A stretch of 55,436 bases of DNA from a virus. The DNA lies in IMG/VR virus record IMGVR_UViG_3300005529_000045, positions 1 to 55,436 of that record. One strand, written 5' to 3'. The notes under the pieces are model-generated. The model was given only the letters and a program-made list of their open reading frames with translations. It was not told where the DNA came from and ran no database searches. A program made the position numbers and the translations under genes. Below are positions 34,678 through 51,403 of the stretch, in pieces; position 1 is the stretch's first letter; the number at the start of each line of letters is the position of its first letter.

Positions 34678-35105
34678 CGGAGCGTGCCGCGGTCATTGTC
34701 GAGGCGAAATCCTGGATCGGCACGCCGTTCCACCACCAGGGGCGGATCAAGGGGAAAGCGGGCGGCGTCGATTGCCTGATGTTCCTCGCCGAGGTCTATG
34801 AGCGCGCTGGGGTCTGCGGCCATATCGAGCCGCCGTTCTATGTGCCCGACTGGCACATGCACCGCGATGCCGAGCGCTACATGGAAGGACTGCTCGGCTA
34901 TGCCCATGCGATCGACGGGCCGCCGGAACCGGGGGATATCGCGCTGTTCAAGTTCGGCCGCACCTTCTCGCACGGTGCGATCGTCATCGAGTGGCCGCGG
35001 ATCGTGCATGCCTATGCGTGGGCGAGACAGGTCACCCTGGGCGACGCGTCGATCGACGGGCGGCTGAGAGACAAAGACACCCGGTTTTTTACGCCGTTCC
35101 GATGA
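34674..35105 (+). CDS. NlpC/P60-family tail peptidase (GTA gp14-like)
   Basis: A 143-aa enzyme starting at GTG, VTERAAVIVEAKSWIGTPFH. The catalytic Cys is in KAGGVDCLMFLAEVYERAG (about residue 35) and His in GRTFSHGAIVIEWPRIVHAY (about residue 101). The spacing and the GTPFHHQG lead are as in the tail NlpC/P60 peptidases of GTAs and lambda K-like proteins. It cuts peptidoglycan crosslinks when DNA enters. It overlaps the large tip gene by four bases. Confidence 0.92.
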   Translation: MTERAAVIVEAKSWIGTPFHHQGRIKGKAGGVDCLMFLAEVYERAGVCGHIEPPFYVPDWHMHRDAERYMEGLLGYAHAIDGPPEPGDIALFKFGRTFSHGAIVIEWPRIVHAYAWARQVTLGDASIDGRLRDKDTRFFTPFR

Positions 35106-37381
35106 AGCTTTTGTCGCTCCTTTGGGCGCTGCTGCGGGACACGCACGGCGGTGGCGGCCCGTCGCCCTTCGTCAACGCGTTCTCCGGACCGAATGACGGG
35201 TCGCTGCGGTACAACACTTCGCAATTCGGCTCGCCGCTGTTCCTGGTCTACGGGACTCAGCGCGTCAGTGTGAACCTCCTCGAGGAGTTCAATTTCTCGG
35301 GATCGGGGTCGTCTGGGAAGGGCGGCAAGGGGCTGGGTTCATCGGGCGGCAAGAAGGGCGGCGCCAGCTACACGATCGATGTCGCATTCGGGGTTTGCCA
35401 GGGGCCGGCCACCTTCACCGGTGCCCCTGTCGGGTTTTCCGGCAACAACCGCGTCTGGGCCAATGGCGGGGTCGCCGGATCGGACCGGGTAGGTCTCAAC
35501 TTTTATGTCGGGACGGACGGCCAGACGGCAGACCCGGTGTTCGAGAGCTCGGACCCGAATACGCCCGTTATCGCCTATTCCGGCACCACCTATGTCACCG
35601 GCACGCCGATGCAGCTGGGATCGACCCCGGCGCTGCCGAACATCTCATTCGAGGTGTCGGGGATCGGCAGCGGGGCGTGGGTCACGGCGGGGTACAGCGG
35701 CTATGGCGGTGCGTCGCCGGCGCCGAGCGGCGGCGGGTGCGGGCCAGGGTTCCCGGGAGATGCCAATCCGGCCTTTATCATCACCGATCTTTTGACGAAC
35801 CCGCGCTATGGCGCGGGGTTTCCGATCGGCAATCTCGACGTGGCGGGATCGGTCGCCGATTACGGCAATTACTGCCAGGCGGCTCAGCTCGCGATGTCGC
35901 TGTTGCTCGACCGTCTCCAGCCCTGCGCGCGCTGGATCGAGGAGATTTGCGAACTCACCGTGTCGGCGCCGGTGTGGTCGGGTGCGCTGTTGAAGATCGT
36001 TCCGTACGGCGACCAGGCGCTCAGCCAGAACGGTGCGACGTGGTCGCCGAACCTGACCTGGGCCTATTCGCTGACCGACAGCGATTTTCTCGACTGGGGT
36101 GGCGATTCCGACCCGGTCATCTGCACCCGGAAAGACCCGGCGACGATGACCAATTGGCTCAGCCTCGAATACATGGACGCCAGCAACTCCTACAACCCTC
36201 AGATACTCCCGCAGTGGGACCAAGCCCTGATCGACCAGTTCGGCGTCCGCCTGGAGCCGCCTGTGCAGGGCCACGAATTCACCAACGCCACTTCGGCCAG
36301 CGTCTCGGCCCAACTGATGCTGCAGCGCAAGGCCTATATCCGCAACACGTACAAATTCAAGCTGGGCTTCCGCTTCTCCTTGTTGGAGCCGATGGACATC
36401 GTGCTCCTGACTGACGGCAATCTCGGCCTCGCGCAGCAGCCGGCCCGCGTTATCCAGATCGAGGAAGACGACAACAGCGAGTTGACGGTCACCGCCGAAG
36501 AAATCCCCGGCGTTATCGGGGCGGGCGGCCTGATCGCGCCGCAAGGCACCGGCACGGCAACCGTCTACACCCGGCTGACAAGCGCCGGGTCGATGGCGGC
36601 CGACATGCTCGCGGACCCCGGCACGGTCAACCCGCCGGTCATTTTCGAGCCGCCGTCGGCGCTGACCGGCGGCGCGCCGGAAGTCTGGGTCGTCGCGACC
36701 GGGGAGAGCACGACTTACGGCGGCTGCCTTGCCTATATCTCGCAGGACGGCAACACCTACGCGCCGATCGGCACGATCCTCGCGGGCGGCCGCCAGGGCG
36801 TCCTGACGGCCAACCTGCCGAGCCACGCGGACCCGGACACCGCCGACACCCTGTCGGTGGACCTGTCGATGTGCGCGGGATCGATGATTTCCGGCACACA
36901 AGCCGACGCCGACGGGTTGGTGACGCTCTGTTATGTGGACGGGGAATTGATCGCCTATGAGACGGCGACCCTTACCTCGGCCAGCCACTACAACCTGACC
37001 TATCTGCGGCGCGGGGCCTATGGGACGGCAATCCGGGCACACGCATCGGGGTCGCAATTCGCGCGGTGCTCGCCGACGGATCCCGCAGTCCTGCGGTACG
37101 CGTTCCCGGCCAGCTATATCGGCCGGACGCTCTATTTGAAGCTGCTGGCGTTCAACACGTTCGGGCTGGAACTCCAGACGCTGGACGAGGTCGAGCCGAC
37201 GATCTTTGCACTGACCGGAGCCGGCGCCGTCATTACGCCGAACAACCAGGTCATCACCAATATGCTCGACGGCGTGACGCCGGAAGACTGGGGCACCATC
37301 GGCACGCCCGTCATCGCGACCGCCGATTTCGGGGTCATCTCGCTCACGCCCGGTCTCGATATCGATCTCGGCACCGTCTGA
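35102..37381 (+). CDS. Large tail-tip / host-specificity protein (GTA gp15-like)
   Basis: This 759-aa protein starts MKLLSLLWALLRDTHGGGGP. It contains a Gly/Lys-rich loop (SGSSGKGGKGLGSSGGKKGG) and YTIDVAFGVCQGP. Then come NPAFIITDLLTNPRYGAGFP, the tip-attachment motif found in GTA gp15 and TIM-barrel tail proteins, and DPVICTRKDPATMTNWLSLE. The C-terminal part (DGELIAYETATLTSASHYNL, LTYLRRGAYGT) is the usual closing domain. It forms the tail hub that meets the cell surface. Confidence 0.92.
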   Translation: MKLLSLLWALLRDTHGGGGPSPFVNAFSGPNDGSLRYNTSQFGSPLFLVYGTQRVSVNLLEEFNFSGSGSSGKGGKGLGSSGGKKGGASYTIDVAFGVCQGPATFTGAPVGFSGNNRVWANGGVAGSDRVGLNFYVGTDGQTADPVFESSDPNTPVIAYSGTTYVTGTPMQLGSTPALPNISFEVSGIGSGAWVTAGYSGYGGASPAPSGGGCGPGFPGDANPAFIITDLLTNPRYGAGFPIGNLDVAGSVADYGNYCQAAQLAMSLLLDRLQPCARWIEEICELTVSAPVWSGALLKIVPYGDQALSQNGATWSPNLTWAYSLTDSDFLDWGGDSDPVICTRKDPATMTNWLSLEYMDASNSYNPQILPQWDQALIDQFGVRLEPPVQGHEFTNATSASVSAQLMLQRKAYIRNTYKFKLGFRFSLLEPMDIVLLTDGNLGLAQQPARVIQIEEDDNSELTVTAEEIPGVIGAGGLIAPQGTGTATVYTRLTSAGSMAADMLADPGTVNPPVIFEPPSALTGGAPEVWVVATGESTTYGGCLAYISQDGNTYAPIGTILAGGRQGVLTANLPSHADPDTADTLSVDLSMCAGSMISGTQADADGLVTLCYVDGELIAYETATLTSASHYNLTYLRRGAYGTAIRAHASGSQFARCSPTDPAVLRYAFPASYIGRTLYLKLLAFNTFGLELQTLDEVEPTIFALTGAGAVITPNNQVITNMLDGVTPEDWGTIGTPVIATADFGVISLTPGLDIDLGTV

Positions 37382-37390
37382 GGAACAGCC

Positions 37391-37900
37391 GTGGCAGAAA
37401 CCCAGGTCCAGCATGCGCGCGGGACATCGGCCCAGTTCGGCTCCTACACGGGGCCGGCCGGCGAAATCAACGTCAACATCGACGACTATTCGCTGCGGGT
37501 GCAGGACGGCTCGACGATCGGCGGCTGGCCGCTGCGGACCGTCGCCTCGGCCGGCCGGAGCTACAACAACAGCGCCACATCGGGCAGCACGATCACGCCG
37601 ACGGCGCATTCCGGCGGGATCATTTTCGACTTGGGCGGCCCACTGGCGGCACTGACGATCAATTCTCCGGGCAGTCCGAACGACGGGGATGATTTCGAGG
37701 TCGTGACGACGCAGCCGATCGCGGCGGTGACATTCGCCGGCGCCGGCGGGGCAACGGTCAAGGGCGGCACGTTCGGCCTGGGGCCGAACTCGTGCATCCG
37801 GTTCTTCTACCGCGCGGCCAATACGACCTGGTACCGGGGCTTGGCGAGCGGGCTTCTGGGCTTCGACCAGGCCCAGATCATGCAGAATTTGGGAGTTTGA
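37391..37900 (+). CDS. Tail fibre-associated protein, 169 aa
   Basis: GTG start after AGGAAC: VAETQVQHARGTSAQFGSYT. The first part (GPAGEINVNIDDYSLRVQDG; STIGGWPLRTV) is the known phage motif that begins many fibre proteins (the GxxGE...D...LRVHDG pattern). A beta-rich region and an end AQIMQNLGV follow, which also ends many fibre repeats. It is probably the hub-proximal fibre piece or a stand-alone decoration. It lacks the signal peptide that the next four genes carry. Confidence 0.78.
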   Translation: MAETQVQHARGTSAQFGSYTGPAGEINVNIDDYSLRVQDGSTIGGWPLRTVASAGRSYNNSATSGSTITPTAHSGGIIFDLGGPLAALTINSPGSPNDGDDFEVVTTQPIAAVTFAGAGGATVKGGTFGLGPNSCIRFFYRAANTTWYRGLASGLLGFDQAQIMQNLGV

Positions 37901-37904
37901 CCCG

Positions 37905-38390
37905 ATGTTGAAACGGCTTCTCGGAGCGGCCGGCCTCGCGTGGCTGCTGGGCACGGCAGCGGCGCTCGCAGCGCCGACGCCGAATTCCGCGATCATGCCG
38001 CAGACGCCGAAAGAGGCGCTGGGAACCGTCACCAACGCCTCGGGCACGACCCCGCAGACGCTCTATGCGGCCGGGACGAACGGCAGCAAGGTGGTCGGTA
38101 TCAGCTGCTCCAATACCGACACGTCGAGCTATACGCTGCAGCTCTTCCTGCGCACCGCCGCGACGAACTACGTCCTGACCTCGGCGACAATCGCCGTTTC
38201 GGCCGGCAATGTCGCCGCGACGGCGCCCCTCGCGCTGTTGAGCAGCTCGACGATCCCGGGGATTGCGACCGATGCAGCGGGGCAGCCCTATCTCTATCTC
38301 AATTCCGGCGACAGCCTGATGATCGGGACGACGGTGACCGTCACATCGGGCAAGCAGATCGCCTGCGAAGCGACGATCGGCGACTTCTGA
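37905..38390 (+). CDS. Exported fibre-like protein 1, 161 aa
   Basis: A clear Sec signal peptide is present: MLKRLLGAAGLAWLLGTAAA with cleavage expected after LAA (about residue 23). The mature part is beta-rich (TLYAAGTNGSKVVGISCSNT; LQLFLRTAATNYVLTSATIA) with two cysteines that could pair in the periplasm. It is the first of four adjacent genes with signal peptides. Either these proteins are exported or the leaders have another use in assembly. The stop overlaps the next ATG. Confidence 0.7.
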   Translation: MLKRLLGAAGLAWLLGTAAALAAPTPNSAIMPQTPKEALGTVTNASGTTPQTLYAAGTNGSKVVGISCSNTDTSSYTLQLFLRTAATNYVLTSATIAVSAGNVAATAPLALLSSSTIPGIATDAAGQPYLYLNSGDSLMIGTTVTVTSGKQIACEATIGDF

Positions 38391-39679
38391 TGCGCCGTTT
38401 CGGGTTGAACGCCGTCGCATTCGCGGCGGCGATGCTGGCGGCCGCCCCGGTCCTGGCACAGATGCCGGGGGCGACGGAGCCGCGACCGCGGCTTGTCCCT
38501 GGAGGGGTGCTGACCTCGCCGGTGTTGAGCGGCACCGTCAAGTTCTCCGGCATCACCGGCTCGACGCAATGCCTCCAGGCGAATTCGAGCGGCGTCGTCT
38601 CGGGTTCCGGGGGGTCCTGCGGCGGAACGCCGGCGGGGTCGACCGGCGCGATCCAGTACAACACCGGCAGCGCCTTTGGGGGCGCCGTCGTCTCCGGCCT
38701 GGTTAAGGGCAACGGGACGAGCGCGCCGAGCGCGGCGACATCGGGCACCGATTACGCTCCCGCCACGAGCGGCAGCGCGATCCTGAAGGGCAACGGATCG
38801 GGAGGATTTTCGAGCGCCGCATCGGGGACGGACTACGCCCCGGCCACAAGTGGCAGCGCGATCTTAAAAGGCAACGGCTCCGGCGGGTTTTCCAGCGCCG
38901 CCAGCGGAACCGACTACGCACCCGCGACGAGCGGGTCGTCGATCCTGAAGGGAAATGGCTCAGGCGGTTTTTCCAACGCCGCATCGGGCACCGACTATGC
39001 CCCCGCAACAAGCGGAAGCGCGATCCTCAAGGGCAATGGGTCCGGCGGGTTTTCCAACGCCGCGAGCGGCACCGACTATGCACCCGCCACGAGCGGTTCT
39101 GCCATCCTGAAAGGCAATGGCTCAGGCGGGTTTTCGAGTGCCGCGAGCGGTACTGATTATGCGCCGGCGACCTCCGGCTCTGCGATCCTGAAAGGCAACG
39201 GTAGCGGCGGCTTCTCCAGCGCCGTGAGCGGCACCGACTACGCCGCAGCGCCCCTGATGGCAGTGTTGTCGAGCGACGCACCGGGCTTCACCAGTAACAC
39301 GACACTCGGGACAGTCGGTTTGTCGGCCTCGCTCGTCGCCGGCAAGACCTATGTGTGCGACGCGACCCTCCTGGTGTCATCGAGCTCCGGCGGAGCTCAG
39401 GCCGAGCTCGCGACGAGCGACACGCTGACCACGACCGCGATCGGCTATGTCGTCAACCTCTTCGTCAACACGGCGTCGTCGTCCAAGTTTTCGACGGTCC
39501 AGTCAGCGCTCGCGAGCGCCGTCGGCGTCACGGCGCAGGTCAATTCGATCGAGATACACGCCGGCATCGTCGTCAACGCGGCCGGCACCCTCCAGGTTGA
39601 GGCCGCCCAAAATTCATCGAATGCGGCGACCACGACAATCAAGGCGGGGTCGCAACTGAAGTGCCAGCCGACAAGCTGA
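38390..39679 (+). CDS. Exported fibre-like protein 2 with 27-residue repeats, 429 aa
   Basis: Signal peptide MRRFGLNAVAFAAAMLAAAP ending VLA-Q (about residue 24). A linker (GAIQYNTGSAFGGAVVSGLV) leads into six tandem copies of a 27-residue unit, SGTDYAPATSGSAILKGNGS plus GGFSSAA, then a partial seventh. The C-terminal 150 residues are a beta-rich head (GKTYVCDATLLVSSSSGGAQ; VNSIEIHAGIVVNAAGTLQV). The repeats probably make a trimeric beta-helical or collagen-like shaft. The first and last parts have ordinary fibre character, but a phage fibre with a signal peptide is unusual. Confidence 0.72.
   Translation: MRRFGLNAVAFAAAMLAAAPVLAQMPGATEPRPRLVPGGVLTSPVLSGTVKFSGITGSTQCLQANSSGVVSGSGGSCGGTPAGSTGAIQYNTGSAFGGAVVSGLVKGNGTSAPSAATSGTDYAPATSGSAILKGNGSGGFSSAASGTDYAPATSGSAILKGNGSGGFSSAASGTDYAPATSGSSILKGNGSGGFSNAASGTDYAPATSGSAILKGNGSGGFSNAASGTDYAPATSGSAILKGNGSGGFSSAASGTDYAPATSGSAILKGNGSGGFSSAVSGTDYAAAPLMAVLSSDAPGFTSNTTLGTVGLSASLVAGKTYVCDATLLVSSSSGGAQAELATSDTLTTTAIGYVVNLFVNTASSSKFSTVQSALASAVGVTAQVNSIEIHAGIVVNAAGTLQVEAAQNSSNAATTTIKAGSQLKCQPTS
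38741..39226 (+). repeat. Six tandem 81-bp coding repeats
   Basis: Six in-frame copies of an 81-bp unit (27 codons) encode nearly identical protein, while third positions differ freely between copies (for example TCG against AGC for Ser). The copies are therefore old and kept by selection on the protein, not recent slippage products. Confidence 0.9.
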
Positions 39680-39696
39680 GCGGAGACACCTGATCG

Positions 39697-42600
39697 ATGC
39701 GATGGCTGTTTAAGGCGGCGCTCGGCGCCGCAGCGGTTGCGGCTGCCTGGGTCCCGGCTGCCTATGCGGGGTCAGGCAATTGCGGGCAGGCGTTTGTCGC
39801 GCCCTCGCAATCGTCGGTGTCCCCTGCTGCGGGCAACGACGGCACGACTTATTCGCCGGCGAGCGTCTCCGGCTCATCCCTGACCGTCAACCTGCCGACC
39901 ATCGGCACCGTGGCGGTCGGCTGGACTGTCTGCGCGACGAGCGATGCAAACAAGGCTTCGGTGCTGAGCGCGCCGCTGCTCGCGGCCCCAGGTGCGCCGA
40001 CGCTCGGCACGGCAAACGGCGGCACGCTCACCTCGCGCACCGAATATTACAAGGTCACCTATGTAAACCTCGCCGGCGAGACGCTCGCATCGAGCGAGGC
40101 GTCGGTGGCGGTCGGGGCCAACCAGGTGGCGACACTTGCCTCGCCCGGCAGTCTCGGCAATGCGACCGGCTACAACGTCTATGCCGCATCGAGTTCGGGC
40201 GCGGAGACGAAGCAGAATGCGTCCCCGATCGCGCTCAACAATAACTGGACGGAGCCGACGAGCGGGCTTGTTTCTGGCGCTTCCCCGCCCGGCACCGGGA
40301 CGGCACCATCCGCTTACATCCTCGGCGGGGGGCAATCCCTTGCCACCCTGACAGTCGGCCAGGGCGGCAATTACCAGTTCGCGCAGCTCCTGGCCGATGG
40401 CACAAATTACCGCGTGACCAGTGCCTATTTGCAGACCCTGGCGACAAATGGCGCGAGCCCTGTCTTCCCGGCGCGATGGGTCTACCCCGGCGGCCCCGGC
40501 TACCAGGCGACCCAGAACGACAACGGCAACGTCATCTCTTCGGCGCTGACTTCGGGCGGACTCACGGTCACGTTGCCGTCGGCATCCTCGATCGCTGCGG
40601 GGTGGTCCGTCGGCTTGGCCGCCGACGCCAATATGCCGCTAACAGTGCAGACCGGCGGCGCGGCCACGATCCGGCTGCAGGGCGGCAGCACGGTGTCGAG
40701 CTGGAAAATCTCGAATTCCAGCTACTTCCTGACGCAACTGCAATTCGACGGCGCGACCTTCCGCGTGCAGGGGCAGCAGGGCTTATCCTCCGCGGTACGG
40801 ACGATTACCGGGACGGCGTCGGACACGCTGCTGTCGACCGACGCCACGGTCCACTGGGCCGATCCAACCCGCACGACGAACGCGACGGAGACGCTGCCGG
40901 CCTGTCCCTCGGGAATCGACCAGAACCAGCGCACGATCAGCGACGATGTGGGCATCGCCGGCACCTACCTGATCGCGCTTACCGCACCTTCCGGCACGAC
41001 GATCAATAAGCAGCCCGTCTTCTACTTGAATTGGAACGGTGGCTCGGTCACGATCCAGTGCGACGGGGTCTCCAACTACACAGTCTCGAACACAAACCTC
41101 GGCACCGCGAACGTTACCTCGGTCGCACAGCCGAGCGTCGGCCCCAATAGCACCGACGCCGTGACGATGATCGGCCTCGGTAACGGCAACACGCCGACGC
41201 GCGCGAGTCTGTCGGACCTGCAATCACCTCTGTCCCGTACGGCGTGGGGCCTCTATACCGCGACGATCTCCAAGGCCTTTGTCCCGAGCTATTACCCCCA
41301 GCCGATCGACGCCGCAAACGCCGACGTGCTCAATGTCTGCACGTTTGCGAGCCTCACCTTGTCGGGTGCGGTCAGCGGCACGAGCGCCACCTTTACGACC
41401 GCGAGCCAGTACCCGACCGGGGTTTACAACGCGACGCTCGGCGGCGGCACGAGCTACGGCACAATCCAGCTTACCCGCGGCAGCACGGCCGGGACGTTCG
41501 CGGCGAGCGAATCGATCCCCGCCGGGACCGCAATCCGCCTGACGCCGGTCGGTCCGGCTACGGTGCAGATCAACGGCGCGACGAGCGCGTCCACCTCGGC
41601 GGCCTTGGCATCGCCGAACACGATGCCGAGTGGCACCTACGATGTGTCGGGCGAGGGAATAACCGCCGGCACGACGATGACCGTGACCAATGGCAGCGCC
41701 ACGGTGACGTTCTCCTCGGCTCAGACGCTCGCCAACAGCGCCGACCTTCGTTATGCCGACCTCGCCTGCATTTTCGATGTAAGCGGGATCGGCTACGTCG
41801 AACCCTACCGAATTCAGGCATCGCAGAACAACGTGACGCTCGATTTCGGCGACACGTCGAGCCTCATCGGGAATTACACAACCTATGCCGGCGAAATGCT
41901 GGCGATCGACACCGGCGAGACCGCCTCGATCGTGCGCCTCGGCGCGGGGCTCTATGGCGTTACCGCCGTCTCCTCGCCGACCGCGGAAATCGGTTCGCGC
42001 CCGGCGGTTGCGGTCACGACGACCCCATTCTCCGCCCCCGCCGGCGGGGCGAATATGACCTACAGCAACAACACCGGCGGCAACAATACGATCTATTTGC
42101 AAGGCCAGGACCTCAACAAGCCTTATTTCTACTGGTCGTTTTCCGCCTATACGACGCTCGACCCGGGCGCCAACGGCACGATCTATGGTCTCGCGCAAGG
42201 GCAGACCAAGACCCTCGCCAAGTACCAGATGGCGGAAGTCATCCAGATATCGCCGGGCGGCGTCTATTACGTGATGCCGTTCGAGCCGGCGCCGCTCGAC
42301 CCCGTATGGGGAACCACGTCTCCGGCGGTCGAGACGACGACCAGCACCTCATACGTCATGGCGGGTTTAGCGCAGTCCTTTACACCGGGGAAAACCGGTC
42401 GCATCGCGCTCAAGCTGCAAACGGCACTGAAGACCGATACGAGCGGCGATGGGTGTTCAATCCAATGGGTTTATGGGACCGGCGCCGCGCCGAGCAACGG
42501 CGGGTCGGTGACGGGCACCGTGATCGGTCAGCCTGTCACGTACGATGCGATGGCGACTGCTTTGAAGGGATATCCGGTTGCTGTTGAGGCGCTGATTACC

Positions 42601-42711
42601 TCCGGTCTGACGCTCGGCACGACCTATTGGGCGGATGTGCAAATCAAGACCGTGACGGGAGGCACCTGCTCGATCAACACCAATTCCGTCATGATCCGGG
42701 AGAGCAATTGA
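39697..42711 (+). CDS. Large exported fibre/spike-like protein, 1004 aa
   Basis: Signal peptide MRWLFKAALGAAAVAAAWVP ending AYA-G (about residue 24). The mature protein is long and beta-rich with repeated Thr/Ser/Gly stretches (GTLTSRTEYYKVTYVNLAGE; SLTVNLPTIGTVAVGWTVCA). Two related segments contain NGNTPTRASLSDLQ- and VSGTSATFTTA-type sequences like fibre modules. The carboxyl end (GKTGRIALKLQTALKTDTSG) looks like a small carbohydrate-binding-type domain. It may be a receptor-binding spike or an exported surface protein. No enzyme motif is evident. Confidence 0.72.
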   Translation: MRWLFKAALGAAAVAAAWVPAAYAGSGNCGQAFVAPSQSSVSPAAGNDGTTYSPASVSGSSLTVNLPTIGTVAVGWTVCATSDANKASVLSAPLLAAPGAPTLGTANGGTLTSRTEYYKVTYVNLAGETLASSEASVAVGANQVATLASPGSLGNATGYNVYAASSSGAETKQNASPIALNNNWTEPTSGLVSGASPPGTGTAPSAYILGGGQSLATLTVGQGGNYQFAQLLADGTNYRVTSAYLQTLATNGASPVFPARWVYPGGPGYQATQNDNGNVISSALTSGGLTVTLPSASSIAAGWSVGLAADANMPLTVQTGGAATIRLQGGSTVSSWKISNSSYFLTQLQFDGATFRVQGQQGLSSAVRTITGTASDTLLSTDATVHWADPTRTTNATETLPACPSGIDQNQRTISDDVGIAGTYLIALTAPSGTTINKQPVFYLNWNGGSVTIQCDGVSNYTVSNTNLGTANVTSVAQPSVGPNSTDAVTMIGLGNGNTPTRASLSDLQSPLSRTAWGLYTATISKAFVPSYYPQPIDAANADVLNVCTFASLTLSGAVSGTSATFTTASQYPTGVYNATLGGGTSYGTIQLTRGSTAGTFAASESIPAGTAIRLTPVGPATVQINGATSASTSAALASPNTMPSGTYDVSGEGITAGTTMTVTNGSATVTFSSAQTLANSADLRYADLACIFDVSGIGYVEPYRIQASQNNVTLDFGDTSSLIGNYTTYAGEMLAIDTGETASIVRLGAGLYGVTAVSSPTAEIGSRPAVAVTTTPFSAPAGGANMTYSNNTGGNNTIYLQGQDLNKPYFYWSFSAYTTLDPGANGTIYGLAQGQTKTLAKYQMAEVIQISPGGVYYVMPFEPAPLDPVWGTTSPAVETTTSTSYVMAGLAQSFTPGKTGRIALKLQTALKTDTSGDGCSIQWVYGTGAAPSNGGSVTGTVIGQPVTYDAMATALKGYPVAVEALITSGLTLGTTYWADVQIKTVTGGTCSINTNSVMIRESN

Positions 42712-43829
42712 TGCGGCGCGCAATTCTCGGGTTGCTGCTGGACGCCTTGTGTCTTACGGGCGTCCATGCGGCGGAGCCGCTCTATGGCATCCCGCGGCGG
42801 GTGTACGACGCCCGGGTCATGCTGCTGGGGTATTCGATCCCGGAATACATGGTCGCGGCACCGGCACTGACCGCCCTTAAAAATGGCATCATCTCGGGGT
42901 CGGTCTCCCCCGTGGTGCGATCCGCCGAGGTCATCAACAATGCGGTCAGCGGCTCCTTCGCTTGCGGCGAAAACGGCGCGATCCTGTCGGGCCAGTCAAA
43001 CTACTGGGCGCTTTACAATGGCGGTTCCCCGACGGCCGGTCCCTATCTGACCAGCGCCTTGAGCGAGATTGCCGCTCGGCTCGCCACCAGCGTGACCCAC
43101 CCGACGCCCGACCCTCCAACGGCATTCCTGGCGGGCCTTGGCGGGGAGGACGCGCGCTACTATCACCAGATCGGGTCGCAGGTCGCGACGCAATACACTG
43201 TGTGCATGGAATATATCATCGCGCAGGTGGAGGCGGCGCTCGGCGGATCGGGGCCGGTGCCGTTCTATTTCGACGTGATCCAGCGCTACGGGGCCAACAT
43301 TAGCACCGATGGCAGCTTCGGCGGCCTCGATGCGATCCGGGCGCAGCAGCTGACCAACGTCATGGCCTATGCCAACGTATACCCGCTGCCGGAAGTCTAC
43401 GATTACGGGATGATTTCGACCTCCGGACACCCGGACCTGAATTTTCAGGCGTCCTGGGGCTCCCGGTGGGCGGCCGCCATTGCCAAGCACCAATATGGCG
43501 GTACGAACAGCTTTCTCGGGCCGACGATCTCAACCTGCACGTCGTCGGGATCGACGATCAGCGTCGCGATCGCGCCGGAAAGCGGCGACACTCTGGCGAC
43601 GCCGAGCTCTGCTTTAGGGCCATGGGGCTTCGCGTTTTACGACGGGACAACCCCGCTCAACGCGACCTGGATCGGCTGGAACGGCAACACCGCACAGTGG
43701 AATGCCGGCGAGTCGAACGTCGCGGCGCTGCATTGCAAATACATCAGCGACTGGGGACCGGGCTTTGATCCGACCCGCGTCGTTTCGGGGGTGACATCGA
43801 CGATGCCGCTCCGCCAGAAGCAATTCTGA
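42711..43829 (+). CDS. Exported SGNH/GDSL-esterase-like protein, 372 aa
   Basis: Signal peptide MRRAILGLLLDALCLTGVHA, cleavage before AEPLYG. The mature part shows VMLLGYSIPEYMVAAPALTA early. Later come GLGGEDARYYHQIGSQVATQ and a C-terminal GHPDLNFQASWGSRWAAAIA, which has the position and look of block V (Asp-x-x-His-like) of SGNH hydrolases and sialate O-acetylesterase-type fibres. The catalytic Ser is not certain. If active, it would remove acetyl or similar groups from a surface glycan. A small beta domain follows at the end. Confidence 0.6.
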   Translation: MRRAILGLLLDALCLTGVHAAEPLYGIPRRVYDARVMLLGYSIPEYMVAAPALTALKNGIISGSVSPVVRSAEVINNAVSGSFACGENGAILSGQSNYWALYNGGSPTAGPYLTSALSEIAARLATSVTHPTPDPPTAFLAGLGGEDARYYHQIGSQVATQYTVCMEYIIAQVEAALGGSGPVPFYFDVIQRYGANISTDGSFGGLDAIRAQQLTNVMAYANVYPLPEVYDYGMISTSGHPDLNFQASWGSRWAAAIAKHQYGGTNSFLGPTISTCTSSGSTISVAIAPESGDTLATPSSALGPWGFAFYDGTTPLNATWIGWNGNTAQWNAGESNVAALHCKYISDWGPGFDPTRVVSGVTSTMPLRQKQF

Positions 43830-44377
43830 TGAGCGGCAATCCCTCGGAAATCGCCGCGCTCGTCGCAGATCTCCGCAGCCAGCTGGCTGCCGCAAAGGCG
43901 GCGCAGAGCGAGGTGGAGGCCGAGCGGGACCGCTTGCGCCACGCGAATACGGATTTATCGCGGCAGCTGGACGATGCCCGCAGGGTGCCGCCCCCGGCAC
44001 AGACCAATGCGGCTCTCGATACCGCGCGAGCCGAGGTCGATCGGCTGCGCGCCCAGGTTGCCGATTTGTCGGACCGGATCGGCCGTCAGCCCTCTCCCGA
44101 TGCGGCGCTCCAGGCCCGCATCGTCGAATTGGAAGCGCTCTGTCTCGCCGATCCGCCGGCGGGGAGCGGCATTGTCAAGGTTCAGCGCTACATGACCAGC
44201 GACGGGCGCAAGCACAAATTGCTGCCGGATGCGCAGCACCACGCGGCGAAACTCGGGATCATGGCCGATCTTGGTCTCGATGAGCGCACCGCCGAGGGAC
44301 TGATTGCGCGCAAGGATCGGCTGGCCGCACATCTTGCGATGCTGGCAGATCCTACTGCGGCGGCGGCTGGGGGATAG
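43829..44377 (+). CDS. Coiled-coil protein, 182 aa
   Basis: Starts MSGNPSEIAALVADLRSQLA. Residues about 5-55 and 65-105 form strong coiled coils (AAAKAAQSEVEAERDRLRHA). The C-terminal half is globular: KVQRYMTSDGRKHKLLPDAQ, LGIMADLGLDERTAEGLIAR. It overlaps the end of the esterase-like gene by one base. It may be a fibre-assembly chaperone or a lysis-region accessory protein. There is no signal peptide, in contrast to the four preceding genes. Confidence 0.62.
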   Translation: MSGNPSEIAALVADLRSQLAAAKAAQSEVEAERDRLRHANTDLSRQLDDARRVPPPAQTNAALDTARAEVDRLRAQVADLSDRIGRQPSPDAALQARIVELEALCLADPPAGSGIVKVQRYMTSDGRKHKLLPDAQHHAAKLGIMADLGLDERTAEGLIARKDRLAAHLAMLADPTAAAAGG

Positions 44378-44380
44378 CGC

Positions 44381-44716
44381 ATGCCGGACGAAGACGGCGG
44401 CCTCCTGAAGACTGCCCGCTACGTGCCCGAGGTGCATCTCGGGCACCTACTGCAGATAGCGGCGACGGTAGCGGCAGCCGTGGGTACGGCCGGCGGTATC
44501 TATTTCGGGATCATCGCCCACCTCGCCGACAACGATCGCCGCATCGCGGTGCATGACCAGCGGCTTGTGGCGGTCGAGGCCTATGTCACCCGCGTCGACG
44601 ACGCGGAAAAAACCTTGGCGAATTCGACGGCCGCGAAACTCGACTCGATCCAATCCTCGCTGGCCGATCTGCGGGTGCTCGTCGCGGGGCTGGGCCATGA
44701 CGCGCCGCGCCGTTGA
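44381..44716 (+). CDS. Inner-membrane spanin-like protein (Rz-like), 111 aa
   Basis: MPDEDGGLLKTARYVPEVHL precedes one transmembrane segment (about residues 22-46, LQIAATVAAAVGTAGGIYFG). A charged helical part follows (LADNDRRIAVHDQRLVAVEA; KTLANSTAAKLDSIQSSLAD). The next gene, a lipoprotein, starts inside its last 20 bases in another frame, the hallmark nested layout of Rz/Rz1 spanins. The pair would join inner and outer membranes at the end of lysis. The assignment rests on topology and overlap. Confidence 0.68.
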   Translation: MPDEDGGLLKTARYVPEVHLGHLLQIAATVAAAVGTAGGIYFGIIAHLADNDRRIAVHDQRLVAVEAYVTRVDDAEKTLANSTAAKLDSIQSSLADLRVLVAGLGHDAPRR

Positions 44717-44978
44717 ACTCCTGCTGCTGACGCTCGGCGTCGCGTCCTGCGCCGTATTGCAGGGACCGGCGCCGGCGCAGATCCCGGCGTCATTGGTCGT
44801 GCCCCCGAGGGACCATTACCGGACGGAACCGCGGCCGGCGCGGCATGACCGGCCAAAGCCCGCCGCCCGATCCGATGACATCAGCGACCGGCAGGCCGTA
44901 ATCGACCAGCAGCTCGACGCGATCAGCGCACAAATCAAAGAAATCCGGGACCGGCTGAAGCCGCCGCAAGACCAATAA
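44697..44978 (+). CDS. Outer-membrane spanin-like lipoprotein (Rz1-like), 93 aa
   Basis: MTRRAVELLLLTLGVASC is a lipoprotein signal with lipobox V-A-S-C (about residues 15-18). The mature part is Pro-rich (GPAPAQIPASLVVPPRDHYR), as is usual for o-spanins, then helical with Asp/Arg (ISDRQAVIDQQLDAISAQIK). Its start lies inside the preceding membrane gene. Partnership with that gene in outer-membrane disruption is inferred. Confidence 0.68.
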   Translation: MTRRAVELLLLTLGVASCAVLQGPAPAQIPASLVVPPRDHYRTEPRPARHDRPKPAARSDDISDRQAVIDQQLDAISAQIKEIRDRLKPPQDQ

Positions 44979-45047
44979 ATTCGTCGCCCACGATTTAAGC
45001 GCAAAGGACAGCGCCACTGCGGCGCCTCGCCACTCAGGAGAGATTTG

Positions 45048-45842
45048 ATGACGGCAATTATCGGCTTCGACGCCGATCAAGACTGCTCGCGTGTTGCGGC
45101 CCTCCTGAAAGAACGGGGCGGCGGCTTCATTGCCCGATACCTGAAAAACCTCAGCCTCGCCGAGGCGGGAGCGATCCTGCACGCAGGGCTCGAGATCCTG
45201 CTGATCTTCGAGACGACGGCCGAGCGGGCGTTGGACGGCGCCGGGGCCGGTGCAGCGGATGGTGCCAAAGCGCGGAATATGGCGGCGGCGCTCGGCGCAC
45301 CGCAGGGCGTCGCGATCGTCGCAACCGTCGATTTCGACGCGACCGAGGCGCAGGAGCCGACCGTCCTCACCTATCTCCGCGGGTTCAAGGCCGGGCTCGC
45401 CGGCCAGGCGAAGCTGATGGTCTACGCCAATGGCGCGATCTGCGCCGCGGCGCTTGATGGCAGGGTTGCCGATTACACCTGGCTCGCCGGCGGCTCCGGC
45501 ATGCGCGGCACGCAGGCATTCAAGGCATCGGGCCGCGCCACGATCATCCAGGATGTCGGGGACAAGCGCGGCCTCGACCTCGGCATCTCGATCGACAGCG
45601 ACGTGGCCTACACCGAGGATTTCGGCGGCTGGTCGCTGACGCCGGCGGCATCGGTGGCGTCCCCGCCTCCAGCCGCATCGACGATCGCAATCCCGGCCGC
45701 CCGTGACCTCCAGGCCGCCCTTGTCGCAGAGGGGCGCGACCTCGGCAACAGCGGTCCCAACGGCGACGGCGTCGATGACGATTGGGGTCCGCTCAGCCAA
45801 GCCGCGCTCGCGGCCCATTACGGCGCGCGATCGAGCGCCTGA
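45048..45842 (+). CDS. Endolysin, DUF1906-type glycoside-hydrolase-like
   Basis: This 264-aa protein starts MTAIIGFDADQDCSRVAALL. The first 200 residues form a TIM-barrel-like domain of the DUF1906 (Rv2525c-like) group: FIARYLKNLSLAEAGAILHA, ILLIFETTAERALD, VAIVATVDFDAT with the acidic residues of the active site, and LMVYANGAICAAAL. After a Pro/Ala linker a short peptidoglycan-binding-like unit follows (ARDLQAALVAEGRDLGNSGP; DDDWGPLSQAALAAHYG). It is expected to cut the cell wall for lysis. It lacks a signal peptide, so the holin must release it. Confidence 0.85.
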   Translation: MTAIIGFDADQDCSRVAALLKERGGGFIARYLKNLSLAEAGAILHAGLEILLIFETTAERALDGAGAGAADGAKARNMAAALGAPQGVAIVATVDFDATEAQEPTVLTYLRGFKAGLAGQAKLMVYANGAICAAALDGRVADYTWLAGGSGMRGTQAFKASGRATIIQDVGDKRGLDLGISIDSDVAYTEDFGGWSLTPAASVASPPPAASTIAIPAARDLQAALVAEGRDLGNSGPNGDGVDDDWGPLSQAALAAHYGARSSA

Positions 45843-45917
45843 CGCACTTTCCATCTCTCGGCGTTGCCGGTCTCTCAGGGGCCGGGAGCCATTCCACCTC
45901 AATCCGCAGGGGTAACC

Positions 45918-46349
45918 ATGCCCATCGATATCTCGCCCGTCGTCAATGCGGGCATCCTCCTCGCCATGGCGGCCGTGTCCGCCTATGGCGTGCCGCTGCT
46001 GCGCAAGGCCGGCGAAAAGGCCGGGATCGACCTCTCGGTCGCAAAGCAGCAGGCCCTGCAACAGGCCCTCGACAAGGCCTGCCAGGCGGGCGCTGTCGCG
46101 ATGGAAAGCGAGGCGGCACAAAAAGGCTGGGACCACATCGATGTGCGCAACGGCGCAACCTCGGTGGCGCTCTCCTACCTCGTCCAGCGCTTCCCCGACA
46201 CGTTGAAGCTGGCCGGCGTCGAGGACGTGAATGCTCCCGGCGCGCTTGCGAGCTTGCGCCAGGCGATCCAGCGCACCTTGCCGACGGCGATGGCGCCGAT
46301 CGCCGCGTCGCCGGCGACGACCAACGGCCCGCCCGCCGCCGCCGCATAG
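45918..46349 (+). CDS. Holin, LLH-type
   Basis: MPIDISPVVNAGILLAMAAV begins a protein with one N-terminal transmembrane segment (residues about 8-27). A helical tail follows (AKQQALQQALDKACQAGAVA; GWDHIDVRNGATSVALSYLV, then QRFPDTLKLAGV). That is the pattern of the LLH-family phage holins of alphaproteobacteria. Its length, 143 aa, is normal. It should control the timing of membrane opening. The start at 45918 follows GCAGGGG, a reasonable ribosome site. Confidence 0.8.
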   Translation: MPIDISPVVNAGILLAMAAVSAYGVPLLRKAGEKAGIDLSVAKQQALQQALDKACQAGAVAMESEAAQKGWDHIDVRNGATSVALSYLVQRFPDTLKLAGVEDVNAPGALASLRQAIQRTLPTAMAPIAASPATTNGPPAAAA

Positions 46350-46356
46350 CCGTCGG

Positions 46357-46398
46357 TGTTCATTTTTGCCGCCTCAAACGTGGTGGAGAAAATGAACA
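46357..46398. repeat. Inverted repeat with 10-bp arms
   Basis: TGTTCATTTT (46357-46366) and AAAATGAACA (46389-46398) are exact inverted repeats 22 bp apart, in the 108-bp gap between the holin and lipoprotein genes. This may be an RNA hairpin or a protein site. There is no U-tract in the right position for a simple terminator. Confidence 0.6.
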
Positions 46399-46457
46399 TC
46401 CCGTACTGAACTTCCGGGGCCGGGTCACCGGCCTCTCATCCCGAAAGGACATCATTG

Positions 46458-46895
46458 ATGATTAAGACAACCCGCATCGCGGGCGCGCTGGCGCTCGGCC
46501 TGTCGCTGGCCGGCTGCGGCTCGGCGCCAACCCCCTCGGCACAGACGATCGGCGAAGCGCTGGCGGCCACCCAGCCCGGCCAATTTGTGCTGACCTGGGC
46601 GAGGGGGCTGGCGGCGAACGCCAAGGCCTCGCTCGCCAAACTCACTGCTGGGGGCGGCCTCAGCCAAAGCGATATCGCGAACCTCTGTGCGATGGACAAC
46701 ACGGCGCACTCGGCCGTGCAGCTCGTCGAGCTGATCCCGGTCATCCCGGCGACCGTGGCGCCGCTCGACAACGCGGCGCACGCGGCGATCCAGGGCGCCT
46801 GCCAGGTGGCCCAGGGCGGTGCGTTGCCGTCCCTCGCCGACCTGTCGTCGATCGCGGGCGAGGCGCAGGCGCTGATCGGCGACCTGAAGCTTTGA
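46458..46895 (+). CDS. Lipoprotein, 145 aa
   Basis: MIKTTRIAGALALGLSLAGC has a classic lipobox (LAGC, residues about 17-20). The mature part is Ala-rich and helical (TIGEALAATQPGQFVLTWAR; GLSQSDIANLCAMDNTAHSA). I recall similar lipoproteins next to holin genes in related phages. It might act in lysis control or be a lysogenic surface protein. Its stop overlaps the TTG start of the next gene. Confidence 0.7.
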   Translation: MIKTTRIAGALALGLSLAGCGSAPTPSAQTIGEALAATQPGQFVLTWARGLAANAKASLAKLTAGGGLSQSDIANLCAMDNTAHSAVQLVELIPVIPATVAPLDNAAHAAIQGACQVAQGGALPSLADLSSIAGEAQALIGDLKL

Positions 46896-47374
46896 TCCGT
46901 CTTCAATTCGTCGCCGAGCGCGATCTCGGCTCGGCGGCGATCGGCTGGTTTTCCGCGGGTCACCTGTCGCATGTCGACGCGGTGCTGCCGGACGGCCGGC
47001 TGTTCGGCGCACGCTCCGATCATGCGGGCGGCGTGCCTCCCGGCGTCTGGGAGCGGCCCCCGGGGTACGCCCGCTTTGCGCGCCGGGTCATCGCCACGAT
47101 CCCGGCGAGGCCCGCGGCCAAAATCCGCTGGCGGTGCTTTCTCGAGGAGCAAAGGGCCAAGCCCTACGACCGGCTCGCGATCCTTGCTTTTGCGGTCAAC
47201 CGCGACTGGCGCGAGGACGATTCGTGGATTTGCTCCGAGTTGCAGGCGCGCGCCCTCGAATACGCCGACATCGTGCCGCCCCTCTACCTCGCCTGCAACA
47301 AGATCACCCCGGTAGCGCTGGCGCTCGCTGTCAGTGCCCTGCCGGGGGTGCGGATTGTCGAGGCGATGCCGTGA
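46892..47374 (+). CDS. Papain-like (YiiX/NlpC-type) enzyme, 160 aa
   Basis: TTG start inside the previous stop: LIRLQFVAERDLGSAAIGWF. It contains SAGHLSHVDAVLPDGRLFGA (candidate catalytic His, about residue 27) and, late, REDDSWICSELQARALEYAD (candidate Cys, about residue 115). This is the permuted order of YiiX/YycO-type papain-fold proteins. The substrate could be a peptide or lipid linked to the cell wall. It is grouped with the lysis genes, so help in wall breakdown is plausible but unproven. Confidence 0.7.
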   Translation: MIRLQFVAERDLGSAAIGWFSAGHLSHVDAVLPDGRLFGARSDHAGGVPPGVWERPPGYARFARRVIATIPARPAAKIRWRCFLEEQRAKPYDRLAILAFAVNRDWREDDSWICSELQARALEYADIVPPLYLACNKITPVALALAVSALPGVRIVEAMP

Positions 47375-47583
47375 AGCCGCCCCAATGCCCCGGCCCCGAG
47401 CGGGCGACGGAGTGCGACAACCCCGGATGCCGCAGGGGAGGGTGTCAGGGGCGGCTGCCGCGCGCCGAGGCGAGGTCCTGCGGCTGGCGGCTGTCCCAGG
47501 AGCCAGAAGGCGTTTGCGAGCGCTGCGGGGGCCGCTGGCGTGACTACCAGCGACCGCGCGAATGCCGTGAGCCGATGCGATGA
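47371..47583 (+). CDS. Cys-rich small protein, 70 aa
   Basis: GTG start in the previous stop: VKPPQCPGPERATECDNPGC, then RRGGCQGRLPRAEARSCGWR and EGVCERCGGRWRDYQ. Seven or more cysteines in pairs (including C-E-R-C) suggest one or two zinc ribbons. It is highly basic, so it may bind nucleic acid. No family is recognised. It overlaps the next gene by ATGA. Confidence 0.62.
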   Translation: MKPPQCPGPERATECDNPGCRRGGCQGRLPRAEARSCGWRLSQEPEGVCERCGGRWRDYQRPRECREPMR

Positions 47584-49967: not shown

Positions 49968-50423
49968 CTAGACAGCCAACTCCCACCAGTTGAACCGCCG
50001 CCGCCCCGGCTCATTCCCCGGCACGCCGCGCACCATGCCGCGCTTGCTGTAGTAGTTCAGCAGCGCCCGCGTCCGCCGGTTGTAGAGATTGACCTGTGCC
50101 GGGTCGGCAGAGTTGATGCCGCGGCGCTGCATTAGATGCAGGGCGAGTTCCGGCGTCGTGACCGGTCCGCCAACCTCGCGCATCTTGTCGAGGATGATGC
50201 GGACGAACTCGCCCCGGAAGGAAATGGCGTCGGGCGGCACTGGCGTCTTCGGGCGGATGCCGGCCACGTCGTACTCGGGATCGAAGATGCGTATCGAGGC
50301 ATCGACATGGCTTAGGTCGATAAGTAGTTGCCGCAATTCGGAGCGAAGTGCTGCAATCCGCCCGGTCAATTCCGCGCGTTTCGCCACTAAGCCTGAAAGC
50401 GTATGGCCGCGATCCTCTGTCAT
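49968..50423 (-). CDS. Companion protein of IS1595-type transposase, 151 aa
   Basis: I start it at MTEDRGHTLSGLVAKRAELT (ATG 50423). It has a coiled region, IAALRSELRQLLIDLSHVDA, then RGEFVRIILDKMREVGGPVT and TPELALHLMQRRGINSADPA, a winged-helix-like part, and ends FNWWELAV. Proteins of this pattern often sit beside IS1595-type transposases in alphaproteobacteria as I recall. Its ATG overlaps the transposase stop, so the two are co-translated. It may guide or limit the transposase, or the pair may have been taken over for another task. Confidence 0.72.
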   Translation of the reverse strand: MTEDRGHTLSGLVAKRAELTGRIAALRSELRQLLIDLSHVDASIRIFDPEYDVAGIRPKTPVPPDAISFRGEFVRIILDKMREVGGPVTTPELALHLMQRRGINSADPAQVNLYNRRTRALLNYYSKRGMVRGVPGNEPGRRRFNWWELAV

Positions 50424-51403
50424 GCTGCTGCGCTCCGGTTCCAATAGCCGCGCCAGACTTGGCTTTTCGGATGCCGCAGCGCGGCGCCGGCCATCCATCG
50501 GCATTGGGTTCCGTTCGGCACGCGGCGGTTGTCTTCTCGCCAGGCCATTTCGTTTGCGTACTGGTACAGGTAGCGCCCGCTGATCCGATGATGGACGCCA
50601 TACTCGGCGCGCCGCAGCCGGGAGAAAAAGCTTTCGGCCTGGTTCACGTTGGCGCCGTCTTCGGCGACATACTCGACGCTGTGATTGACGCGACGCGTAT
50701 CAAAGGAAGCGTGCAGCGCATCCCAATTCGCGCTTTCGTCCGCCATGACGATGGTGCCCGAGGCGACACAGGCGCGGATCAGCGGCACCGCTGCGCTCTC
50801 GCGCGGCACGATGAATGTCAGGGTCCGGCCGCCAATCTCGCGCGCGACAACGACAACCTGCCGCTTGCCGGTCTGCTCTTCGGCAAGGCGACGGTCTTTC
50901 CGGTCTTCCTTGCGGTTTTCCGGCTTAACGTGGCCTCCAGCATACATGCCATCAACGTGCACTTCCCCGGAGAGCTCGGGTGCATCCGGGTTTTGGACCT
51001 CAGCGCCGACAGCCTCGCGGAGCTTGTGCGAAAGCACGAATGCCGTCTTGTACTGGCAATCGAGGTCGCGGCTTAGTTGCAGCGCCGAGTGACCCTTGGC
51101 GCCGTTCACGAAGATCGCGATGGCAAGCAGATAATCCCGGATTGGGCGCTTCCGGTCGGCGAAGATCGTGCCGGCCGTCACGCTGAACATGTACCGGCAT
51201 TCCTTCGCGCCGCATTTCCAGAGGTTCCGCGTCGTGATCGCCGACAGCCGAGTGCATCCGCAGCGGGGGCAGTACGGTTGCCCGTCGTTGTCGGCCCAGC
51301 GGATCGCGACGAACTTGGCGTGCGCTTCCTCGTCCGACATACGCGCGACGGACGCTAGCGAGAGCGTCCTTGCGGCTGCGGAGAGAAGGAAATGTTGCGA
51401 CAC
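50420..51403 (-). CDS. IS1595-family (ISXO2-like) transposase
   Basis: I prefer the GTG at 51403 (VSQHFLLSAAARTLSLASVA), which matches the usual start of this family; an ATG at 51430 would add nine residues. The N-terminal zinc ribbon is CPRCGCTRLSAITTRNLWKC. The core follows: FSVTAGTIFADRKRPIRDYL, SALQLSRDLDCQYKTAFVLS, catalytic Asp in GEVHVDGMYAGGHV, a second in IVMADESANWD, and the Asn region GANVNQAESFFSRLRRAEYG. It is complete in length (327 aa). I see no terminal inverted repeats around the gene pair. Confidence 0.88.
   Translation of the reverse strand: MSQHFLLSAAARTLSLASVARMSDEEAHAKFVAIRWADNDGQPYCPRCGCTRLSAITTRNLWKCGAKECRYMFSVTAGTIFADRKRPIRDYLLAIAIFVNGAKGHSALQLSRDLDCQYKTAFVLSHKLREAVGAEVQNPDAPELSGEVHVDGMYAGGHVKPENRKEDRKDRRLAEEQTGKRQVVVVAREIGGRTLTFIVPRESAAVPLIRACVASGTIVMADESANWDALHASFDTRRVNHSVEYVAEDGANVNQAESFFSRLRRAEYGVHHRISGRYLYQYANEMAWREDNRRVPNGTQCRWMAGAALRHPKSQVWRGYWNRSAAA

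What the first reader, a model, noticed from the sequence alone, without database searches (positions are those of the whole stretch)
37905..43829. Four consecutive fibre-like genes all begin with classical Sec signal peptides
Genes at 37905, 38390, 39697 and 42711 each start with a basic n-region, a hydrophobic core and an A-x-A type cleavage site (LAA, VLA, AYA, HA). Phage tail fibres are normally assembled in the cytoplasm and lack such leaders. Their position right after the tail-tip module argues for a receptor-binding role, but the leaders argue for export. Possibilities: proteins displayed on or secreted from the infected cell (surface masking, decoy, glycan editing), or a tail part built from the periplasm side at lysis.
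Basis: partly seen in the sequence, partly recalled or inferred. Interest (0 to 1): 0.74.

Follow-up and report, generated by a model that had tools for sequence, protein, structure and literature searches.

The report
Exported tail-fibre-like genes in a phage
A bacterial virus carries four fibre- or enzyme-like genes right after its tail tip, all starting with export signals; such signal-led fibre genes recur in unrelated phages, suggesting some phages send part of their host-recognition kit through the cell membrane, although where these proteins end up is unknown.

Summary
Four abutting genes (37905-43829) start with Sec leaders; three are clear, the fourth is weaker (Asp in its core). They follow the tail tip and a leaderless gene with a Major-tropism-determinant N-terminal domain (Mtd_N), and precede the lysis genes in one nearly gapless array.

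It is not unique. In 12 of 18 relatives with a readable gene after Mtd_N, that gene is leader-led, against a 5.6% background. Of 80 viral contigs carrying the shaft repeat of the second protein, 70 are leaderless and 10 (9 distinct) leader-led. Unrelated phages have runs of three to five leader-led genes, some in clear structural operons.

Mature parts resemble the distal half of tail fibres, or esterases. In two sister phages the first protein exists without a leader, its homology starting at the predicted cut.

Best reading: accessory fibre-type receptor-binding or glycan-modifying proteins, exported by Sec, acting outside the cell after lysis. Whether they dock on the tail or work free is open. 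Closest known cases are exported neighbours of receptor-binding genes (lambda Lom, T5 Llp, Cor), which are not fibre-like. No report of this arrangement was found in the searched library.

The parts
35102..37381 (+). tail-tip (GTA/J-like hub) protein, short C-terminal form
   Evidence: PF13550 1.1e-20, PF23666 3.8e-14, phrog_1101 9e-82
37391..37900 (+). leaderless Mtd_N-domain protein, likely tail-attached receptor-binding or adaptor protein
   Evidence: PF18454 4.9e-6; phrog_9648 tail protein; 34-56% identical in relatives
37905..37970 (+). Sec signal peptide of protein 1 (22 aa)
   Evidence: score 6.33
37905..38390 (+). protein 1, exported small protein; leaderless homologues in L016 and L087
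   Evidence: alignment A4; gene contexts
38390..38458 (+). Sec signal peptide of protein 2 (23 aa)
   Evidence: score 6.73
38390..39679 (+). protein 2, exported shaft-repeat fibre protein
   Evidence: 80 viral loci share the shaft repeat
38696..39250 (+). shaft repeat region (unit of about 27 aa, SGTDYAPATSGSAILKGNGSGGFSSAA)
   Evidence: sequence; motif start
39697..39768 (+). Sec signal peptide of protein 3 (24 aa)
   Evidence: score 6.53
39697..42711 (+). protein 3, exported multi-domain fibre-like protein
   Evidence: residues 242-357 match leaderless Mtd_N proteins of L033 and L007 and genes of the L020 run; residues 881-1002 match L014 and L012
42711..42770 (+). probable Sec signal peptide of protein 4 (20 aa, Asp in core)
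   Evidence: score 3.91
42711..43829 (+). protein 4, probable exported SGNH/SASA-type carbohydrate esterase
   Evidence: residues 136-370 match L097 at 2.4e-9; L097 carries PF03629 SASA at 7e-11; no direct Pfam hit
43829..44377 (+). coiled-coil protein, start of lysis-side genes
44381..44716 (+). holin-like small protein that follows the slot in relatives
   Evidence: weak matches in L012, L038, L013, L020, L002
45048..45842 (+). endolysin-like glycoside hydrolase
   Evidence: PF08924 2.5e-17; phrog_13480 endolysin

Best explanation
Genes 37905-43829 are an accessory set of receptor-binding or glycan-modifying fibre-type proteins carrying working Sec signal peptides. They are translated late, in one operon with the tail and lysis genes (inferred from layout). 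They cross the inner membrane, lose the leader, fold in the periplasm (inferred), and meet the finished particles only when the cell lyses. They then act outside the cell: most likely by docking on the tail next to the leaderless Mtd_N protein, otherwise as free adhesins or esterases on the surfaces of debris and neighbouring cells. Shown: leader-like N-termini, array position, recurrence, fibre or esterase homology, leaderless homologues. Inferred: export, timing, site of action, docking.
For: (1) Three strong leaders and one weaker in a row. (2) Recurrence: of 18 relatives with a readable gene after Mtd_N, 12 have a leader-led gene there (L007, L008, L013, L022, L028, L033, L034, L035, L037, L039, L041, L044), against 5.6% of 1706 genes. 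(3) Leader sequences differ between relatives while the signal features stay, including a lengthened n-region in L028, which fits export better than a docking peptide. (4) Mature parts match distal tail-fibre ends: L007 to phrog_11393 positions 269-538 of 538, L041 to phrog_4492 785-1094 of 1096, L034 to phrog_5939 372-743 of 801. (5) Protein-2 shaft: 70 leaderless and 10 leader-led among 80 viral loci; leader-led genes lie in structural operons of L173, L172 and L110, with runs of three in L173, three in L158 and five in L180. (6) L180 has a leader followed at once by an Mtd_N domain (PF18454 2.9e-4, below Pfam's cut-off), so a virion-type N-terminus can itself be leader-led. (7) Protein 1 is leaderless in L016 and L087, homology starting at the predicted cut; if both forms do one job, it must lie where cytoplasmic and periplasmic pools meet, after lysis. 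(8) Starts overlap or abut upstream stops and no sigma-70-like promoter was found. (9) Esterase domains recur on leader-led proteins: L172 GDSL 2.8e-13, L044 GDSL weak, protein 4.
Against: No export, cleavage or virion data. The protein 4 leader is weak. The slot is empty in L017, L091 and L094 although Mtd_N is present, so the set is dispensable. No docking domain was recognised in the window proteins, and five of nine leader-led shaft proteins lack room for the anchor seen in leaderless ones, which favours free action. Leader-led and leaderless protein 1 may have diverged in function. Structure models were unusable. The promoter scan covers one promoter type only.
Confidence: 0.45

Rival explanations
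1. The proteins are soluble exported factors, not virion parts: receptor decoys or glycan-editing enzymes that stop progeny from sticking to debris or block superinfection, working like T5 Llp or Cor but built from fibre ends.
For: The leader stands in place of the virion-anchoring half in several relatives; exported receptor-masking proteins next to receptor-binding genes are known: Llp lies directly downstream of pb5 (PMC9586334) and Cor masks FhuA (PMC13164509); the slot is dispensable; esterase domains.
Against: Protein 1 also exists leaderless at the same place, hard to square with a purely periplasmic role before lysis; L180 keeps an Mtd_N domain after the leader; Llp and Cor are small lipoproteins, these are not.
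Confidence: 0.33
2. Lysogenic conversion genes (lom-like morons): expressed from the prophage to alter the host surface or adhesion.
For: Lambda lom sits between J and the tail fibres, has a signal peptide and is expressed in lysogeny (PMC12309495); relatives of the tail tip occur in bacterial genome contigs; presence of the slot genes varies.
Against: No own promoter seen and no gap: genes overlap or abut the Mtd_N and lysis-side genes, so late lytic expression is more likely; mature parts are fibre-like, not a beta-barrel.
Confidence: 0.13
3. The hydrophobic N-termini are not export signals but fibre docking peptides, or chance.
For: No experimental cleavage; the protein 4 leader has an Asp in the core.
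Against: Basic n-region, core and A-x-A site recur on some 20 varied mature sequences with little sequence conservation; shuffles reach these scores in 1-2% for three of four; the leaderless homologue starts at the cut.
Confidence: 0.06

Closest known systems
Lambda Lom (J-lom-stf region)
   Same: Signal-peptide gene right after the tail-tip gene, next to fibre genes (PMC12309495)
   Different: Lom is a beta-barrel outer-membrane protein; here several fibre- or esterase-like proteins in a row, no barrel recognised
T5 Llp and T1/phi80/N15 Cor superinfection-exclusion lipoproteins
   Same: Exported protein; Llp is encoded directly next to the receptor-binding protein (PMC9586334, PMC13164509)
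   Different: Those are small lipidated proteins; these have non-lipid leaders and fibre domains
Leaderless tail fibres and minor tail proteins with the same shaft or distal domains
   Same: Shared shaft repeat and distal domains
   Different: Those start with other, often virion-anchoring, N-terminal regions and no signal peptide; here a leader stands at that end
Bordetella phage BPP-1 Mtd
   Same: The upstream gene shares the Mtd N-terminal domain
   Different: Only the N-terminal domain matches; no diversity-generating retroelement was looked for; the Mtd_N gene itself has no leader

Membership tests
Sec/SPI-exported proteins | basic n-region, hydrophobic core, A-x-A cut | tested here: met
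   Three clear, fourth borderline, home-made scorer only
Sec/SPI-exported proteins | actual translocation and cleavage | not testable with these tools
   Needs experiment
Virion tail fibres / receptor-binding proteins | fibre shaft or distal domains | tested here: met
   Met for protein 2 (shaft), partly for protein 3; leader-led genes of relatives match tail-fibre PHROGs
Virion tail fibres / receptor-binding proteins | virion-anchoring N-terminal domain | tested here: not met
   None recognised in the four proteins; short pre-shaft region in five of nine leader-led relatives; but L180 has one
Virion tail fibres / receptor-binding proteins | presence in purified virions | not testable with these tools
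   Needs proteomics
Llp/Cor superinfection-exclusion proteins | small lipoprotein with lipobox | tested here: not met
   No lipobox in the four proteins; sizes 161-1004 aa
Lom-type lysogenic conversion proteins | outer-membrane beta-barrel related to Lom/Ail | tested here: not met
   No Pfam or PHROG hit of that kind
Lom-type lysogenic conversion proteins | expression in the lysogen | not testable with these tools
   Only the layout was read: no gap and no sigma-70-like promoter
SGNH/SASA esterases (protein 4) | family profile match | tested here: inconclusive
   No direct Pfam hit; match to a SASA-domain protein at 2.4e-9; Ser and His motifs seen by eye, the Asp three before His not seen

The most novel reading that the evidence does not exclude
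A minority class of tailed phages, including this one, builds part of its adsorption apparatus outside the cytoplasm: fibres are exported by the host Sec system, fold in the periplasm, and are added to tails only at lysis.
Probability: 0.3. Interest if true: 0.88.

Novelty: new variant of a known kind. Interest (0 to 1): 0.62.

Why it matters
Tail fibres are taken to be assembled wholly in the cytoplasm. A recurrent class of leader-led fibre genes in structural operons of unrelated phages would mean a second route for host-recognition proteins, or a large class of exported fibre-derived decoys and enzymes. Either would change how receptor-binding proteins are annotated and how host range is predicted. 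One virion-proteomics experiment would decide much of it.

Tried and rejected
Direct relatives of proteins 1, 3 and 4 in viral contigs from single sequences: none. DNA-level match in cultured phages: none. A wider alphaproteobacterial tail-tip survey with PF13550 gave mostly GTA-type loci followed by leaderless genes, so the trait is not general to that tail-tip superfamily. AlphaFold of protein 1 (pLDDT 44) and protein 4 (pLDDT 36) was unusable and no fold search was made. A disulfide argument from cysteine counts is weak (1.02 against 0.75 per 100 aa; 16 of 20 counts even, three of them zero) and is not relied on. Literature: no report of leader-led tail fibres in ten searches of the open library, which does not show that none exists. 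A first impression that close relatives lack the module (L002-L005) was revised once more relatives were found.

Full report
OBSERVATION. The window is a whole IMG/VR virus record of 55,436 bases, 65.5% GC. They abut each other and their neighbours, with gaps between -1 and 17 bases. A home-made leader scorer (n-region charge, core hydrophobicity, cut site) gives 6.33, 6.73, 6.53 and 3.91. At 5.5 or more only the first three of 76 called window genes pass; shuffled N-termini pass in 1.3% of trials. The fourth, MRRAILGLLLDALCLTGVHA|A, scores low because of the Asp in its core; I count it as probable. SignalP was not available.

WHERE IT SITS. Upstream is a tail tip related to the GTA/J hub family, then a leaderless 169-aa protein with the Major-tropism-determinant N-terminal domain, PF18454. 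Downstream are a coiled-coil protein, a holin-like protein, an endolysin-like glycoside hydrolase and a lipoprotein. No sigma-70-like promoter was found from 36900 to 47500. The layout suggests late expression with tail and lysis genes; this is inference.

RELATIVES WITH THE SAME TAIL TIP. Profile scans gave 45 loci and an Mtd_N scan added more. They fall into two main kinds. In one, the second tail-tip gene is 343-348 aa, has an extra C-terminal stretch and runs straight into the lysis-side genes (for example L002-L006, L011, L012, L014, L024, L029, L031, L032, L038, L043). In the other, that gene is 281-286 aa and an Mtd_N gene follows. The two look like alternatives, which suggests that the Mtd_N gene, with or without its followers, takes over the receptor-binding end (inference). 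Of 18 relatives with a readable gene after Mtd_N, 12 have a leader-led gene there, two have a leaderless relative of protein 1 (L016, L087), three go straight to the holin-like gene (L017, L091, L094), and L095 has another small gene. The background over 1706 genes in the held loci is 5.6%. Related phages are not independent, so no p-value is given. Two loci without Mtd_N (L015, L020) also have leader-led genes after the tip, at least two in L020. L091, whose slot is empty, has a leader-led fibre-like gene after the lysis genes.

WHAT THE MATURE PROTEINS ARE. In relatives, leader-led proteins match the distal parts of known tail-fibre families: L007 to phrog_11393 (269-538 of 538), L041 to phrog_4492 (785-1094 of 1096), L034 to phrog_5939 (372-743 of 801). 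The homologues examined in cultured or deposited phages have no leader. Protein 3 shares a domain with leaderless Mtd_N proteins of L033 and L007 and with genes of the L020 run, so modules move between the two kinds. Protein 4 matches a SASA-domain esterase of an alphaproteobacterial genome; leader-led esterases also occur in L172 (GDSL, 2.8e-13) and weakly in L044.

BEYOND THIS CLADE. The shaft repeat of protein 2 was found in 80 viral loci of 31-68% GC. Seventy are leaderless and ten (nine distinct) start with a leader scoring 6.1 or more; the highest score among the others is 5.46, with alternative starts allowed. The leader-led genes lie among clear structural genes in L173 (terminase, connector, then three leader-led genes in a row, then capsid), L172 (protease, portal) and L110 (capsid). 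L158 has three in a row and L180 five. In L180 one leader is followed at once by an Mtd_N domain (2.9e-4, under the Pfam cut-off). In five of nine leader-led proteins the shaft starts 18-41 residues after the cut, shorter than in any of 34 distinct leaderless proteins (minimum 56); in the others it does not. So 'leader in place of anchor' is common, not universal.

KEY COMPARISON. Protein 1 of the window is 50% identical to leaderless proteins in L016 and L087 at the same place after Mtd_N; the alignment begins at the predicted cut. If both forms do the same job, that job lies where cytoplasmic and periplasmic proteins meet, which is after lysis. This is an inference and assumes shared function.

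MECHANISM. I therefore favour late-made, Sec-exported fibre or esterase proteins that mature in the periplasm and act outside the cell after lysis, docking on the tail being somewhat more likely than free action. The free-factor reading (decoy or glycan editing, Llp/Cor-like in effect) is close behind. Lom-type lysogenic conversion is less likely because of the gapless array. Chance or non-export is unlikely.

KNOWN SYSTEMS. Exported proteins next to receptor-binding genes are known: Lom (PMC12309495), Llp directly downstream of pb5 (PMC9586334) and Cor (PMC13164509). None is fibre-like, to my knowledge. Hence 'new variant of a known kind'. In the open-library searches made here I found no account of leader-led tail-fibre clusters.

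LIMITS. No wet data, no SignalP, no usable structure models, many contigs are fragments, and the gene calls are my own.

Noticed in passing
L012:6301-6966, L041:5489-6169, L017:3647-4333 and about 14 more loci: A second conserved exported family (some lipoprotein-type) of about 221-230 aa with conserved cysteines sits just before the tape-measure gene; absent from the window. No convincing Pfam family.
   Followed up: partly
L002-L006, L011, L012 and most relatives: The tail-tip protein is split into two genes (about 450 and 280-350 aa) in most relatives but is one gene in the window, L010 and L021; in L005 about 700 bases separate the halves.
   Followed up: no
window and relatives: Length of the tail-tip C-terminal part (343-348 against 281-286 aa) and presence of an Mtd_N gene look like alternatives, suggesting exchangeable receptor-binding ends.
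   Followed up: partly
L096:5764-11595: Mtd_N-like proteins alternate with other repeated fibre-like proteins on a 231 kb viral contig.
   Followed up: no
53489-53842: Short protein with HPFINGNGR, which looks like the Fic/Doc motif, near the right end.
   Followed up: no
50420-51340 and 54533-55435, minus strand: A zinc-ribbon transposase-like protein and an integrase-like protein, by eye only, suggesting a temperate phage.
   Followed up: no
L044:13305-15155: Leader with twin Arg (possible Tat signal) on a fibre-like protein with a GDSL-type end.
   Followed up: no
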